64,000 nucleotides of DNA from Dictyostelium firmibasis (lineage: Eukaryota > Evosea > Eumycetozoa > Dictyosteliales > Dictyosteliaceae): NCBI GenBank assembly GCA_036169595.1, contig CM069765.1, positions 1,517,001 through 1,581,000 on the forward strand, in the 5' to 3' direction. This document shows, piece after piece, positions 29,580 to 48,211 of the stretch; positions within the stretch are counted from its first letter, which is position 1; every line of letters starts with the position of its first letter. The notes under the pieces are model-generated. The model had not been told where the DNA came from. It did no database searches and was given only the letters and a program-made list of their open reading frames with translations. The position numbers and the translations under genes are program-made.

Positions 29580-30006
29580 CTAATGTAATGAATCAACAAA
29601 TAAATAATTAAAACAAATATAAAAATAATAAATAAAAAATCAATCAAAAATCAAATTACAAATTACAAATTAGCCAAATTACAAATTAGCCAAATTACAA
29701 ATTAAATTAAATTATTATAATATCAACCCATTAAATCAACAACTTAGAAATTTAGGAATTATAATAATCAATTTAATAATTTATAATAATTAAATTATAA
29801 ATTATTAAATTTCAAAATATAAATATTATAATTCCTAAATTTCTAAGTTGTTGATTTAATGGGTTGATATTATAATAATTTAATTTAATTTGTAATTTGG
29901 CTAATTTGTAATTTGTAATTTGATTTTTGATTGATTTTTTATATATTATTTTTATTTTTATTTAAATTATTAAATTGTTGATTAATTTCAAATTTCATTA
30001 CATTAG
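29580..30006. repeat. Long near-perfect palindrome abutting tRNA-Met
   Basis: The two halves are reverse complements about a centre near 29793. The outer ends are CTAATGTAATGAA (29580-29592) and TTCATTACATTAG (29994-30006). Strong inner arms include ATCAACCCATTAAATCAACA and its complement, and the central AT stretch is itself palindromic. The main asymmetry I see is an extra AGCCAAATTACAAATT unit in the left arm. The right end runs into the first bases of the tRNA gene. It could be a foldback/MITE-like element or a local inverted duplication; I find no transposase. Confidence 0.85.
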
Positions 30007-30076
30007 CTTCTTAACTCAGGGGTAGAGTGCGAGGCCCATAACCTCGAGGTCCTAGGATCGAAACCTAGAGAAGCTA
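30005..30076 (+). tRNA. tRNA-Met (CAU)
   Basis: A full cloverleaf of 72 nt without CCA. The acceptor AGCTTCT pairs with AGAAGCT, and the D stem is ACTC/GAGT. The anticodon stem is CGAGG/CCTCG with loop CCCATAA, giving anticodon CAT. The T arm is CTAGG-ATCGAAA-CCTAG, followed by discriminator A. There is no intron. The T loop begins ATCGAAA rather than TTC; together with the A-U first pair this could suggest either elongator or initiator identity, which I leave open. Confidence 0.93.
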
Positions 30077-30106
30077 AATTTTATTGCCCAAGGTCTTATA
30101 GACACG

Positions 30107-30117
30107 GGTTCGACTCT
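30107..30117 (+). promoter_or_regulatory. External B box downstream of tRNA-Met
   Basis: GGTTCGACTCT matches the Pol III B-box consensus GGTTCGANTCC. It lies 30 nt beyond the tRNA 3' end and outside any tRNA fold. Dictyostelium tRNA genes are known to carry such external B boxes. The tRNA-Gly gene at 48099 has one at almost the same distance. Confidence 0.75.
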
Positions 30118-30137: not shown

Positions 30138-30170
30138 AAGTAGTGGTTCCACGCTGAATCACAAGCCTCC
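30138..30170 (+). repeat. 5' piece of a tRNA-box repeat, split by the TRE3 insertion
   Basis: The sequence AGTAGTGGTTCCACGCTG...ACAAGCCTCC is the front of a repeat that resumes after the LINE at 32234. It aligns with the heads at 32322, 47852 and 48041. The A-box-like AGTAGTGG lies at 30139-30147. Confidence 0.75.
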
Positions 30171-32096
30171 AATCAAAAGAAAATAGGCGGAATAATAACA
30201 TTCTACGATTTCGAAAAGGCTTTTGATTCCATCTCACACGACTCAATACTCAGAACATTATTTCATATAAATATTCCGTACAAGATTGTCAACCTCATTA
30301 TGAGCCTCCTAACGGATTCAGAAGCAAGAGTAGAAGTGAACAATAATAAAACACGTCCTTTCACTATTAAAAGGGGGGTAAAACAAGGCGATCCCTTATC
30401 CCCTACCCTTTTCGTCCTAGTCATCGAATCCCTTGCAAGGGCAATATTGGAAGACAAAAACATTACCGGACTACCACTAAACGACGGCATCCAAAGAGAA
30501 AAATTCCAAGGTTTCGCGGACGACTCGACATCGTTGGTAAATGACAAAAACCAACTAAAAATAGTTCTTAAACACTTCAACACCTTCTGTAAAGCAACCT
30601 CTTCCAAACTAAATCTGGATAAGTCGGCCTCGATAGTTCTGGGAAATACTAACTACAATGGAATAGAGATTCCAGAATCTACCAATCCAGAAAGATACCT
30701 TGGATATTTTTTCACAAAGAATGGTATCCATAGGAAAATGCCAGAAATTCTCAGATCAATTCGCGCTTCCCTCCTACTCTGGAAAACGACCGGGACCACA
30801 GTAAAAACGAAAACAAGCATTCTCAAGGCCTTCGCATTATCCAAATTAACCTACTTTTCATACATAGAAAAATATAATGAAGATGAAATAAAACAAATAA
30901 ACAAAATAGTAGAGTGGTTTCTATCGGCCTCAAACTATAAAAACTCTACTGGCTTCAATGTTATAAACCTCATGAGCGCAAAAAGATCAAAATATCCAAT
31001 GGAACAAGGCGGATGGAACATATGGGACATCGAACAAAGACAAAAAGCCCAAAGACTATGGATAATCAATCAATTTATTCATGCACAAGAAAGCAATTCA
31101 ATATCCTCAGCAACTCATAAAAGTTGGAACTTTCAATTAACGACAAATAAAATTACATCACAATTTCTAAAAAACAACCTAGAAGATTGGAACAGGAGCA
31201 GATCTAAAAGAGGAATTTTCCGATTCGCTGTTTCAATCAAAAATCAAATAGGTCAACCTTTATCACTATCCGAATGGTACAAAGAGATCGACACCAAAGA
31301 AGAAAAGATTCCAAAAACCTTTCTTCAAGACAACCTTTATATGAGAGGATATAACTACAATCTTCTTTTCACAAACATACTAAACATCAAGGATCCCAAA
31401 ACTAAAAATACAATGTTTAGATTTCATTCGAGATGCCTCCCACTTAATTACCTTCACGAAAAACCATGCCCAATGTGCAATACCAATATGTCTATTGATC
31501 CATACGGACATTTATTCTTTGATTGCCCAAAAACAAAAAACTTCATTAATGTCAATAAACTAAAAAACTTCATCTTTGTAACAACAGGTAGACTCTTAAA
31601 TTGGACGGTAAACAGAGTTAATGAAAATGGAAAAACTCTTATCAGAATATTTCCAAAACTCCCAAACAATGTTCCGACCGATAGCGAAGTGAACCCTGAC
31701 TACGGAATAGACAGATTCCACAAACAATACTTCACCTGGTGCTACAAAGCCGTTAATTATGATTTATACAGACCCTTTGCATACAACAATGTAATAGCAT
31801 TAGTCATGCATCACATATGGATATGGATTTGTAATCAAATTTATGGTGACAAAGCGCTTCAAGATACCAATTTGGATTTTGAATTGTTATCAAACAAATG
31901 GCACAAACTAGCATCACTAGAATATATTAAACTATTAAAAGACTACAAGCTATCAGCAGCCAAAGATCCAGAAATCTTTTGCGATAAAAACTCATATTAC
32001 AGTAAAATGAAAAAAATCAAAAAAAGAATAGCAATCAAATACTGTATCCTTAGAAAATCACTTCCTAATAATGTGATGGTAGACTTTTTCATATAA
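30171..32096 (+). CDS. TRE3 ORF2 fragment: reverse transcriptase and Cys/His C terminus
   Basis: There are 641 codons open from the element's 5' end to the stop, with no internal break. Reverse transcriptase motifs in order are motif A FYDFEKAFDS, then GVKQGDPLSPTLF, then catalytic FADDST. An RT thumb/connection region follows, then a zinc-knuckle-like CPMCNTNMSIDPYGHLFFDC near the C terminus, typical of L1-type ORF2. The endonuclease and the RT fingers are missing by truncation, and the copy has no start of its own, so it should not mobilise itself. C+G content is higher than in neighbouring host genes. Confidence 0.88.
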   Translation, partial: NQKKIGGIITFYDFEKAFDSISHDSILRTLFHINIPYKIVNLIMSLLTDSEARVEVNNNKTRPFTIKRGVKQGDPLSPTLFVLVIESLARAILEDKNITGLPLNDGIQREKFQGFADDSTSLVNDKNQLKIVLKHFNTFCKATSSKLNLDKSASIVLGNTNYNGIEIPESTNPERYLGYFFTKNGIHRKMPEILRSIRASLLLWKTTGTTVKTKTSILKAFALSKLTYFSYIEKYNEDEIKQINKIVEWFLSASNYKNSTGFNVINLMSAKRSKYPMEQGGWNIWDIEQRQKAQRLWIINQFIHAQESNSISSATHKSWNFQLTTNKITSQFLKNNLEDWNRSRSKRGIFRFAVSIKNQIGQPLSLSEWYKEIDTKEEKIPKTFLQDNLYMRGYNYNLLFTNILNIKDPKTKNTMFRFHSRCLPLNYLHEKPCPMCNTNMSIDPYGHLFFDCPKTKNFINVNKLKNFIFVTTGRLLNWTVNRVNENGKTLIRIFPKLPNNVPTDSEVNPDYGIDRFHKQYFTWCYKAVNYDLYRPFAYNNVIALVMHHIWIWICNQIYGDKALQDTNLDFELLSNKWHKLASLEYIKLLKDYKLSAAKDPEIFCDKNSYYSKMKKIKKRIAIKYCILRKSLPNNVMVDFFI

Positions 32097-32233
32097 AATA
32101 AAATTTCATAGAGAAAATAACAATCACTTAAAAATCATATAAAAAAAATAAAAACCAAATAAATAAATAAACTTTATTATTGTTGAGACTAAGGTCTTAC
32201 AATAATCATTAATATAAAAAAAAAAAAAAAAAA
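30171..32233 (+). mobile_element. TRE3-type non-LTR retrotransposon (LINE), 5' truncated
   Basis: The element spans 2,063 bp, ends in poly(A) (about 32217-32233), and is flanked by a 10-bp target-site duplication, ACAAGCCTCC (30161-30170 and 32234-32243). It inserted about 94 bp downstream of tRNA-Met, in the window known for TRE3 (Tdd-3) elements, which target the region downstream of tRNA genes. Only the ORF2 3' part is kept, starting inside the reverse transcriptase. The precise duplication and uninterrupted frame suggest a recent insertion. Full-length members are about 5 kb, so this copy is a typical 5' truncation from incomplete reverse transcription. Confidence 0.9.
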
Positions 32234-32300
32234 CAAGCCTCCATGGCCAAGACCATGGGTTCGAGTCTTGGTCATACCACGAAGTAACCTGGTCATAATT
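32234..32300 (+). repeat. 3' piece of the tRNA-box repeat interrupted by TRE3
   Basis: It begins with the second copy of the target-site duplication and continues with GGTTCGAGTCT (B box, 32259-32269), CCAAGAC/GTCTTGG able to form a 7-bp stem around the B box, and ACCACGAAGTAACCTGGTCA. The match to the other heads is clear over about 85 bp once the LINE is set aside. Confidence 0.75.
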
Positions 32301-32321
32301 AAACCATCATTATAGGAGGAT

Positions 32322-32505
32322 CTACGTAGTGGTTCTGCCCTAAATCACAAGTCTCCGTGGACTTGGTTCGAGCCTTAGGTCATAACACGAAGTAACGTGG
32401 TCATTAAAAACACACCTCATAATCAACCGGAAAAAAAGCTCCACTTCCAAAAAACAACAACAAAAAAAAAAAAAAACATGGTGATTAGAAATTCGAATCC
32501 CAATA

Positions 32506-32541
<36 letters not shown>
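32322..32541 (+). repeat. tRNA-box repeat (SINE-like), second plus-strand copy with A-rich tail
   Basis: The head has a TACGTAGTGG A-box-like sequence (32323-32332) and GGTTCGAGCCT B box (32365-32375), followed by ACACGAAGTAACGTGGTCA. An A-rich body follows, with ATTCGAATCCC near 32489-32500, and then a long A run to about 32540. A further fragment, GTAACGTGGTCA, follows at about 32542-32553. Confidence 0.7.
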
Positions 32542-46856: not shown

Positions 46857-47472
46857 TTTATTTTTTTATTTTATTTATTTTTATTTTTGTTTTTATTATT
46901 TAATTATTATTAACCTTATCTCTATTATGTAATATCATGATAAATATCACTTTGTTTTTAATTTTTTTTTTTATTTCAAAAAAAAAAAAAAAAAAAAAAA
47001 ATATAAAAAACTCATTTCCCCATTTTAATTTTCACAACTGTCATAAATTTTGGCGGTTCAAAAAAATTTGAATTTTAAAAAATTGGTGTTAAAAAATTAT
47101 AATAATATAAAATTAAAAATTAAAAACTAAACAAAATTAATTGGTTATTTTTTTTATTTTTTTTTTTTTTATATAGAGTTGATATTAATTATTTTTTTTA
47201 TTTTTTTTTTATTTTTTTTTTAAATTGGATATTACAGTTTTAGCTCTTTCCCTGAGGAGAAACACTTTATTTGATTAATAATTTTATAATGTGTGATATT
47301 TGATGTTCATTGAATTAGAAAGTGTGTGTGTGGTAAGAAGTATGAAAGTGGAAATTATTAAAAAGTTATTTTTAACCTTTTGTCAGTTATGAATCTTCAT
47401 GTAATATGTAATCTACAATCTGTGAAGAGATTTACTTCAGATATGTTGTTATCTGATGGTTTTTTTTTTTTT
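46857..47472. promoter_or_regulatory. Upstream region of bub1
   Basis: Poly(A)/(T) tracts dominate. Two islands differ: 47009-47060 with a TTTTGGCGGT box (47048-47057), an E2F-like core about 190 bp upstream of the bub1 ATG, and 47220-47460, a balanced-composition stretch (AGCTCTTTCCCTGAGGAGAA) with no open frame. E2F control of bub1 is inference only. Confidence 0.4.
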
Positions 47473-47530
47473 TAATAACCCCATCCAATTGGATATGTTC
47501 GAATCATGTTTTATTTGTTAATTATTTTAA
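47473..47530 (-). repeat. SINE-like repeat, truncated copy (tail only)
   Basis: A poly(T) run, then AATAACCCCATCCAATTGGAT and TTCGAATCATG, matches the 3' part of the copies at 47698 and 47881 (read on the minus strand it ends in poly(A)). The tRNA-box head is absent, so this copy is truncated at its 5' end, as LINE-mobilised elements often are. Confidence 0.75.
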
Positions 47531-47679
47531 TTTATTTTTCTTCTTTATATACTAAATATTTTATTATTACTTGTTGATTTATAGTTAACTCTATTTGAAT
47601 AACCTAAATGACTTTACTTTAACTAAATTTGGATATTTAAAAATTCTTATCTTTTTTTTTAATTTGAGAATTCTTATTT

Positions 47680-47856
47680 TTTTTTTTTTTTTTTTTTAAT
47701 AACCTCATCCAATTGGATGTGTTCGAATCATGTTTTTATTTATTATTTTAATTTAATTTTTTTTTTTCTGTTACCACGTTAATTCGTGGTATGACCAAGA
47801 CTTGAACCAAAGCCACGGAGGCTGTGTTATTCAGTGTGAAACCACTATGCTAAGCC
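47680..47856 (-). repeat. SINE-like repeat with Pol III A and B boxes, copy 1
   Basis: Read on the minus strand: the A box TAGCATAGTGG (47842-47852) is followed 44 nt later by the B box GGTTCAAGTCT (47798-47808). Then comes the hairpin ACCACG-AATTAA-CGTGGT, an AT-rich body, the perfect 14-bp palindrome CATCCAATTGGATG, and a poly(A) end. The A-to-B spacing equals that of tRNA genes. The T-arm pairing is not intact, so this is a promoter-bearing repeat and not a functional tRNA. Confidence 0.8.
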
Positions 47857-47865
47857 CCAAAGTCT

Positions 47866-48044
47866 TATTTTTTTTTTTTTTAATAACCTCATCCAATTGG
47901 ATGTGTTCGAATCTTGTTTTTATTTATTAATTATTTTAATTTAAAGTTTTTTTTTTCTGTGACCACGTTAATTCGTGGTATGACCAAGACTTGAACCAAG
48001 GCCATGGAGGCTGTGTTATTCAGTGTGAAACCACTATGCTAAGC
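47866..48044 (-). repeat. SINE-like repeat with Pol III A and B boxes, copy 2
   Basis: It is nearly identical to the previous copy, shifted by 183 bp. The A box is at 48031-48041 and the B box at 47987-47997, again 44 nt apart. The poly(A) end (plus-strand T run near 47869-47881) follows the same palindrome. It lies 54 bp upstream of tRNA-Gly, on the opposite strand. Confidence 0.8.
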
Positions 48045-48098
48045 ACCCCCACTCCCACCTTATCTATAGCCATTAATTTTAACAAAAAATAATAATAA

Positions 48099-48169
48099 GC
48101 GTATGTGGTCTAGTGGTATGATGCATCCCTGCCACGGATGCGAACTGGGTTCGATTCCCAGCATACGCA
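48099..48169 (+). tRNA. tRNA-Gly (GCC)
   Basis: A cloverleaf of 71 nt. The acceptor GCGTATG pairs with CATACGC. The D arm contains GTC...GAT around TAGTGGTAT. The anticodon stem is CATCC/GGATG with loop CTGCCAC, giving GCC. The T arm is CTGGG-TTCGATT-CCCAG, followed by discriminator A. There is no intron and CCA is not encoded. Confidence 0.96.
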
Positions 48170-48200
48170 GATTTTTTGAACGAAAATAACTATGATCGTG

Positions 48201-48211
48201 GGTTCGATTCC
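48201..48211 (+). promoter_or_regulatory. External B box downstream of tRNA-Gly
   Basis: GGTTCGATTCC is a perfect B-box consensus, 31 nt beyond the tRNA 3' end and not part of a tRNA fold. The spacing is almost the same as at tRNA-Met. Confidence 0.75.

What the first reader, a model, noticed from the sequence alone, without database searches (positions are those of the whole stretch)
47473..48044. A tRNA-promoter SINE-like family in Dictyostelium
Three minus-strand copies share a poly(A) end and a palindromic 3' body. Two have a head with A box TAGCATAGTGG and B box GGTTCAAGTCT exactly 44 nt apart, the tRNA spacing. The third lacks the head, as expected for LINE-type 5' truncation. Heads related to these occur at 30138/32234 and 32322 beside another tRNA gene. 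Pol III promoter, poly(A) end and truncated copies together define a SINE. I do not recall one described in this genus.
Basis: partly seen in the sequence, partly recalled or inferred. Interest (0 to 1): 0.85.

Follow-up and report, generated by a model that had tools for sequence, protein, structure and literature searches.

The report
tRNA-gene-targeted SINEs in an amoeba
The repeats look like copies of a short, non-coding jumping element with a Pol III-type promoter that piles up about 50 bases upstream of tRNA genes in a social amoeba, while a sister family with a related promoter but another tail sits downstream of tRNA genes; this offers a natural test of what decides where such elements land.

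Summary
The host is Dictyostelium firmibasis, not D. discoideum. The unit (here SINE-U, 165 nt plus poly(A)) has 250 tail and 149 head matches genome-wide, controls 0. Of 114 full-length copies 82 keep both A and B boxes, 78 at 44 nt. Exact target-site duplications of 8 nt or more flank 38 of 71 copies, against 2.2% of mispaired flanks. Of the first 100 tails listed, 69 have a tRNA gene within 600 bp; 67 of these lie upstream in opposite orientation, 37 at 42-57 bp: TRE5 geometry. The last 38 nt equal the 3' end of a TRE5-like LINE ('LINE-B'); no other SINE part matched it. [quoted passage not shown]). Transcription is untested and no LINE partner of SINE-D was found. No dictyostelid SINE family turned up in the listings and passages seen; one paper gives RepeatMasker SINE counts (PMC4683709).

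The parts
47882..48046 (-). SINE-U copy 1, full length (head + body + LINE-like tail); poly(A) of 14 follows at 47868-47881
   Evidence: Query unit itself; 98-99% identical to best copies elsewhere; 53 bp from tRNA-Gly
48031..48041 (-). A box TAGCATAGTGG of copy 1 (fits TRGYNNARNNG)
47987..47997 (-). B box GGTTCAAGTCT of copy 1, 44 nt downstream of the A box
47882..47919 (-). 38-nt 3' tail identical to the 3' end of the TRE5-like LINE-B
47698..47855 (-). SINE-U copy 2, full length; A box 47842-47852, B box 47798-47808; tail 47698-47735 97% identical to the LINE-B end; poly(A) of 21
47474..47534 (-). SINE-U copy 3, 5'-truncated (unit positions 104-165); no clear target-site duplication by eye
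48099..48169 (+). tRNA-Gly(GCC), the target gene: the SINE-U copies lie upstream of it in opposite orientation
48200..48211 (+). Extragenic B-box-like GGGTTCGATTCC downstream of tRNA-Gly
   Evidence: read by eye; extragenic B boxes described in PMC5911963 (passage)
47222..47279 (-). Decayed 3' end of the other TRE5-like LINE (LINE-A), behind the SINE stack
   Evidence: 79.7% to the LINE-A tail, E 1.6e-7
30140..30170 (+). SINE-D copy, first part of head 1, downstream of tRNA-Met, same orientation
   Evidence: 31 nt 100% to a SINE-D copy
30161..30170 (+). Left copy of the 10-bp duplication ACAAGCCTCC made by the LINE insertion (right copy 32233-32242)
   Evidence: read
30171..32232 (+). 5'-truncated TRE3-like LINE (RT and C-terminal part of ORF2, poly(A)) inserted into the SINE-D copy; 'TRE3-like' by position only
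   Evidence: 650-aa open frame against 1244 aa in other copies; RVT_1
32233..32510 (+). Rest of the SINE-D copy: end of head 1, head 2 (from about 32320), A-rich linker, tail GATTAGAAATTCGAATCCCAATAATATT; poly(A) follows
   Evidence: 89.9% over 288 nt to a SINE-D copy; tail
30004..30077 (+). tRNA-Met(CAT), target gene of the SINE-D copy
30106..30116 (+). Extragenic B-box-like GGGTTCGACTC between tRNA-Met and SINE-D
   Evidence: read by eye

Best explanation
These are copies of a SINE family (SINE-U). Inferred cycle: RNA polymerase III starts at the internal A/B-box head and makes a ~165-nt RNA ending in A. The reverse transcriptase of a TRE5-like LINE takes this RNA in trans, most likely LINE-B, whose 38-nt 3' end the SINE carries. 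The LINE machinery inserts it where TRE5 elements go, about 50 bp upstream of a tRNA gene in opposite orientation, by target-primed reverse transcription, leaving a duplication of about 9-15 bp, a variable poly(A) and sometimes a 5' truncation. Repeated hits at the same distance build stacks (inferred: the newest copy lies nearest the tRNA gene). [quoted passage not shown] Since the heads are related and the tails are not, the tail, through the LINE partner, is the likely determinant of the side chosen. Shown: anatomy, copy number, duplications, geometry, shared tail. Inferred: Pol III transcription, trans-mobilisation, tail-determined targeting.
For: Copy number: 250 tails, 149 heads, 0 in controls; a few tails are LINE-B's own ends. 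Boxes: 82 of 114 full-length copies match both A (TRGYNNARNNG) and strict B (GGTTCRANNC) boxes, 78 of those 82 at 44 nt; 12 of 20,000 shuffles give a pair with the loose B box, 2 of 20,000 with the strict one. Exact duplications of 8 nt or more (up to 4 tail A's allowed in, in test and control): 38 of 71 full-length SINE-U against 2.2% of mispaired flanks; SINE-D 15 of 25 against 8 of 1196. Targeting: of the first 100 tails, 69 have a tRNA gene within 600 bp; 67 of these are upstream and opposite, 37 at 42-57 bp and 47 within 95 bp (one of the 67 is a LINE-B-like end); the paper counts 379 tRNA genes in 31.5 Mb. SINE-D: 20 of 20 with a tRNA within 400 bp are downstream and same. Truncation: of the 100 tails 70 are full, 23 cut within the head, 7 body-only, of which 2 belong to LINE-B copies. 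Tail: 38 of 38 nt identical to the LINE-B 3' end in L076 and L077; a third LINE-B-like copy, L135, carries it nearly unchanged. LINE-B lies 47 bp (counted by hand) upstream of tRNA-Ile, opposite, with ATTATCTTTTAAG duplicated around the whole element. Recent activity: 69 of 114 full copies have a neighbour at 99% or more.
Against: No RNA data: transcription and its polymerase are untested. The head gives no Rfam tRNA hit. 32 of 114 full-length copies lack one or both strict boxes, and 27 of 114 have a T run of 4 or more in the sense strand that could stop Pol III. 31 of 100 tails have no tRNA within 600 bp; of the 30 so counted, 18 have a TRE5-like LINE or another SINE-U on the 5' side and 12 have neither; Rfam showed no other Pol III gene in 20 such loci. 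33 of 71 full copies show no exact duplication of 8 nt or more, and those of the window copies are weak (0 and 9 nt by the script, 4 of the 9 being tail A's). Only one intact LINE-B ORF2 was found, so the abundant LINE-A may do the work. No LINE with the SINE-D tail was found, except one LINE-II copy followed by that tail after its own poly(A).
Confidence: 0.85

Rival explanations
1. A variant within the SINE reading: SINE-U is mobilised mainly by the abundant LINE-A through its poly(A) alone; the tail shared with LINE-B is a relic of origin.
For: 12 near-identical LINE-A copies over the query, ten of them with an open ORF2 of 1163 aa, against one intact LINE-B. One LINE-A copy lies about 40 bp (by hand) upstream of tRNA-Leu, opposite, with ACAACTTTAGGTAT duplicated, so LINE-A could supply the same targeting.
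Against: The LINE-A tail matches SINE-U only in A-rich runs, while the LINE-B tail is identical over 38 nt and its last part is kept, within 3 mismatches, at 250 places.
Confidence: 0.25
2. The copies are internally deleted TRE5-like LINEs (like D. discoideum TRE5-A.2) and not SINEs.
For: Same target position and orientation, poly(A) and 3' end as LINE-B. TRE5-A.2 is a known non-autonomous form moved in trans (PMC5633606 passage).
Against: Apart from the 38-nt tail nothing in SINE-U matches the pieces of LINE-A or LINE-B beyond A-rich runs. The LINE-B 5' end is an array of about 180-bp repeats with no head. The 5' end of LINE-III was masked and not seen.
Confidence: 0.04
3. The head comes from a host non-coding RNA other than a tRNA, and the family is a dispersed ncRNA retropseudogene whose A/B boxes do not drive transcription.
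For: No Rfam tRNA match. Best tRNA similarity (tRNA-His) is only modestly above plain shuffles: 3, 18 and 4 of 200 reach it for the three heads. A CCACG...CGTGG hairpin that is not a tRNA part follows the B box in both families (by eye).
Against: Consensus boxes at 44 nt in 78 of 114 copies; by eye also an A box and a loose B box in head 1 of SINE-D. No host gene with this head was noticed, but no dedicated search was made.
Confidence: 0.1
4. Copies spread by local tandem or segmental duplication next to tRNA genes.
For: Two to four copies lie upstream of 38 of 89 tRNA genes in hand.
Against: Own target-site duplications in 38 of 71 copies, 5' truncations, 49 pairs at 99.5% or more at distant loci.
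Confidence: 0.01

Closest known systems
SINEs with a tRNA-type Pol III promoter and a LINE-derived 3' tail (general class; recalled)
   Same: Short, non-coding, A/B boxes, 3' tail shared with a LINE, poly(A), target-site duplications, 5' truncation
   Different: Strong tRNA-gene targeting, and two sister families on opposite sides of the gene
TRE5 elements of Dictyostelium discoideum (PMC5911963, PMC5006619: passages)
   Same: About 50 bp upstream of tRNA genes, opposite orientation, poly(A); the LINE-A and LINE-B copies examined lie likewise
   Different: TRE5 are LINEs with two ORFs; SINE-U has none of that and starts with an A/B-box head
TRE3 elements (same sources)
   Same: Downstream of tRNA genes, same orientation, 40-150 bp; SINE-D lies 68-365 bp downstream, same
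   Different: SINE-D is a non-coding dimer of about 320 nt; its tail matched none of the LINE 3' ends read here except after one LINE-II copy
TRE5-A.2 (PMC5633606 passage)
   Same: Non-autonomous, mobilised in trans, same target
   Different: Lacks ORF2 but is a TRE5-A variant; no Pol III-type head mentioned in the passage seen
Dada DNA transposons that target tRNA and snRNA genes (PMC3706591, PMC8869645: search listing with start of abstract)
   Same: Target small RNA genes
   Different: DNA transposons, not retroposons

Membership tests
SINE (class I, non-autonomous) | Dispersed high copy number | tested here: met
   250 tails, 149 heads, controls 0
SINE (class I, non-autonomous) | Internal Pol III promoter motifs (A and B box) | tested here: met
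   82 of 114 copies have both strict boxes; loose pair in 12 of 20,000 shuffles
SINE (class I, non-autonomous) | Actual Pol III transcription | not testable with these tools
   no RNA data held
SINE (class I, non-autonomous) | Target-site duplications | tested here: met
   38 of 71 vs 2.2% control; SINE-D 15 of 25 vs 8 of 1196
SINE (class I, non-autonomous) | A-rich end and 3' tail shared with a partner LINE | tested here: met
   SINE-U: 38 nt identical to LINE-B. SINE-D: no partner LINE found, so for it not met so far
SINE (class I, non-autonomous) | 5' truncation of some copies | tested here: met
   30 of 100 tails lack all or part of the head, 2 of them being LINE-B ends
tRNA-derived SINE (subclass) | Head recognisably derived from a tRNA | tested here: inconclusive
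   No Rfam tRNA hit; tRNA-His best, 3, 18 and 4 of 200 shuffles as good for the three heads
TRE5-type targeting (behaviour) | About 40-54 bp upstream of tRNA genes, opposite orientation | tested here: met
   67 of 69 with a tRNA within 600 bp are upstream and opposite; 37 of the 67 at 42-57 bp; 31 of 100 have no tRNA that near
TRE5 element (membership) | ORF1/ORF2 LINE with APE and RT | tested here: not met
   165-nt unit without LINE sequence except the 38-nt tail
Tandem repeat or segmental duplication | Shared flanks, no target-site duplications | tested here: not met

The most novel reading that the evidence does not exclude
SINE-U and SINE-D are a natural tail-swap experiment: related Pol III-type heads joined to different tails land on opposite sides of the same class of tRNA genes. 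The short 3' tail, by choosing the LINE partner, therefore decides the integration site, and SINE insertion next to tRNA genes is programmed by the LINE machinery and not by the SINE's own promoter.
Probability: 0.6. Interest if true: 0.82.

Novelty: new variant of a known kind. Interest (0 to 1): 0.72.

Why it matters
SINEs are not known to me as an established part of dictyostelid genomes, and the transposon annotation of this assembly used tblastx against D. discoideum references (PMC11193728, passage), which would miss non-coding elements. If right, a compact genome harbours two SINE families that exploit tRNA-gene neighbourhoods as landing sites, on opposite sides of the gene. That makes a testable system for how target choice passes from a LINE to its parasite and for how such neighbourhoods fill up: 38 of the 89 tRNA genes in hand carry two or more SINE-U matches, a set chosen for having the element.

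Tried and rejected
Rejected: head as 5' end of a LINE. The 5' pieces of LINE families I, II, IV, A and B (L069, L071, L075, L080, L078) do not carry it; that of LINE-III was masked. Rejected: heads at 30138/32234/32322 as separate truncated SINEs; they are one SINE-D copy split by a LINE. Rejected: the SINE-U tail as end of the TRE3-like LINEs; it matches LINE-B.

Led nowhere: Rfam on the head gave only RAGATH-20 at 18.1 bits against a gathering score of 101.4. Rfam on 20 hand-picked loci without a detected tRNA gave only a sub-threshold microRNA match. A first SINE-D BLAST returned nothing, probably because of unsupported gap settings, and was replaced by pattern matching. A partner LINE for SINE-D was not found. 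D. discoideum DNA could not be searched: no eukaryote collection besides this genome is on hand.

Literature: listings; passages of five papers. PMC4683709 Table 1 (passage) lists RepeatMasker SINEs as 88 in D. discoideum and 57 in D. purpureum in default mode; no family is named in that passage. From memory, the default library is not a Dictyostelium one, so these may be spurious. The listings showed no SINE near tRNA genes; the papers in them were not read.

Limits of the counts: the genome search scored 40 of 310, 329 and 234 candidates and listed 100 of 250 tails, all zero-mismatch, in genome order from C1 into C3. The 100-tail statistics are for that subset, which includes two LINE-B ends (C2:1362593, C2:763799), and most of its loci were fetched only 600 bp to the 5' side. 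Distances run from the aligned start, not corrected for the unaligned 5' G's. The duplication test used 71 full copies from loci picked as best matches, so it leans to young copies. Of 26 SINE-D 5' ends one was counted with two tails (L143); six had no tRNA within 400 bp (one at 721 bp downstream, same orientation), and some of those pieces are short.

Full report
WHAT IS THERE. The window belongs to a 31.46-Mb, 12-contig genome that matches Dictyostelium firmibasis TNS-C-14 (PMC11193728, passages). Contig 1 is 9.41 Mb, and the published telomere-like repeat lies at both ends of C1 and C6, at one end of C3 and C4, and near one end of small C8. One figure does not fit: the paper's text gives 3.9 Mb as the smallest main contig and C6 is 2.98 Mb. 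The three minus-strand copies are at 48046-47882, 47855-47698 and 47534-47474. The first two carry an A box and a B box 44 nt apart; the third is cut at unit position 104. Window copy 1 resembles the best copies elsewhere (98-99%) more than its neighbour (94%).

A DISPERSED FAMILY. I call the unit SINE-U. Its 27-nt 3' end (to 3 mismatches) occurs 250 times and a 37-nt piece of its head 149 times, each with 0 hits for the reversed pattern. Of the 100 tails listed (all zero-mismatch, C1 to part of C3) 70 are full length, 23 are truncated inside the head and 7 have body only; at least two of the seven are ends of LINE-B copies. Among 114 full-length copies in hand, 82 fit both strict box patterns, 78 of them at 44 nt; dinucleotide shuffles give an A box with a loose B box at 25-70 nt in 12 of 20,000, with the strict B box in 2. 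The box patterns are recalled. The longest T run in the sense strand is at most 3 in 87 of 114, while tRNA genes here have a T4 or longer run within 30 nt in 78 of 86 cases; the other 27 copies might terminate early. Median pairwise identity is 96%, 69 of 114 copies have a neighbour at 99% or more, and 49 pairs at 99.5% or more lie at distant loci, which suggests recent movement.

TARGET-SITE DUPLICATIONS AND TARGETING. Exact duplications of at least 8 nt flank 38 of 71 full-length copies against 2.2% when 5' and 3' flanks are mispaired; 35 of the 38 are 9-15 nt, with up to 4 tail A's allowed in. For the window copies they are short (ATAAG-like) and not convincing alone. ARAGORN found tRNA genes next to many copies. 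Of the 100 tails, 69 have a tRNA gene within 600 bp, and 67 of these 69 lie upstream in opposite orientation; 47 of the 100 are within 95 bp, 37 of them at 42-57 bp. This is the reported TRE5 position (PMC5911963, PMC5006619, passages). Some copies truncated inside the head stand at the same distance (e.g. C1:176065, C1:5627193). Stacks occur: 38 of the 89 tRNA genes in hand carry two to four matches, in some cases separated by the same duplicated target (L024, L007), as expected if each new copy enters at the same distance. Of the 30 tails counted as without a near tRNA, 18 have a TRE5-like LINE or another SINE-U on the 5' side and 12 have neither; Rfam found no other Pol III gene in 20 loci of this kind.

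PARTNER LINE. Two TRE5-like LINE families exist. LINE-A has 12 near-identical copies over the query, ten with a 1163-aa ORF2, and ends ...ATATCCAATTT-An. LINE-B has one intact ORF2 of 1159 aa (RVT_1), a broken copy at C2:1.363 Mb and decayed pieces. LINE-B ends ...AAACAAGATTCGAACACATCCAATTGGATGAGGTTATT-An: 38 nt identical to SINE-U, and no other part of SINE-U matches it beyond A-rich runs. Two further LINE-B-like copies, L077 and L135, have the same end, L135 with one change in the 38 nt. The full LINE-B copy lies 47 bp, counted by hand, upstream of tRNA-Ile in opposite orientation, with ATTATCTTTTAAG duplicated around the whole element, so the tail belongs to the LINE. Its closest listed proteins are in D. 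discoideum isolates and relatives (up to 62%, best 120 of 991 listed).

A SECOND FAMILY. The heads at 30138-32400 are one copy of a dimeric element, SINE-D: two heads related to that of SINE-U (89-93% in aligned pieces; 81% for the window copy), an A-rich linker and the tail GATTAGAAATTCTAATCCCAATAATATT-An, about 320 nt. A 5'-truncated TRE3-like LINE entered the window copy, duplicating ACAAGCCTCC. The SINE-D tail occurs 136 times (0 in control). Of 40 distinct tails in hand 36 have the SINE-D body and 26 a recognisable 5' end. Of these 26, 20 have a tRNA gene within 400 bp, all 20 downstream and in the same orientation, at 68-365 bp; duplications of 8 nt or more are seen in 15 of 25 against 8 of 1196 mispaired. 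This is TRE3 geometry. No LINE with this tail was found, except that one LINE-II copy is followed by it after its own poly(A).

MECHANISM. The best reading is a pair of SINE families, transcribed from Pol III-type heads (inferred) and inserted by tRNA-gene-targeting LINEs (partner of SINE-U supported by the tail; partner of SINE-D inferred from position). Related heads with different tails on opposite sides of the gene suggest that the tail, by choosing the LINE, decides the side. Expression, the polymerase and the tail rule are not shown.

KNOWN OR NEW. In the papers seen (passages only) no dictyostelid SINE family is described: PMC5911963, PMC5006619, PMC5633606, PMC11193728. PMC4683709 (passage) gives RepeatMasker SINE counts for D. 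discoideum and D. purpureum without naming families in the passage seen. Most subscription journals and Repbase itself were not searched. I class it as a new variant of a known kind: a SINE in the structural features tested, new to my knowledge in host, in tRNA-gene targeting and in the two-sided pair.

Noticed in passing
L055, L067 (C4:3154.9k; C1:7785-7786k): Three SINE-U copies sit inside the palindrome CATCCAATTGGATG of other SINE-U copies, with that sequence as target-site duplication; a cluster with copies in both orientations results at C1:7785-7786k.
   Followed up: no
L076, L079, L020, L025, L030: A dispersed repeat with GTGCCACTTTCAAATGTTAACACCCGTATCAAATATC lies next to several LINE and SINE insertions, in L076 and L079 more than once; nature unknown.
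   Followed up: no
L078 (C5:220700-223000): The 5' end of LINE-B is an array of at least three ~180-bp repeats before ORF1, perhaps a promoter module that grows by repetition.
   Followed up: no
window 47930-47979 (minus) and SINE-D heads: A CCACG...CGTGG hairpin after the B box is kept in both families; weak sub-threshold RAGATH-20 match (18.1 bits, gathering 101.4).
   Followed up: partly
L072 (C6:1481.5k): A LINE-II copy is followed, after its own poly(A), by the bare SINE-D tail: a very short SINE-D truncation or a template jump.
   Followed up: partly
L139 / protein search: The closest listed relatives of LINE-B are in D. discoideum isolates other than AX4 (up to 62%); the two AX4 proteins noticed in the list are at 32-33%, so this lineage may be lost from or degenerate in AX4.
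   Followed up: no
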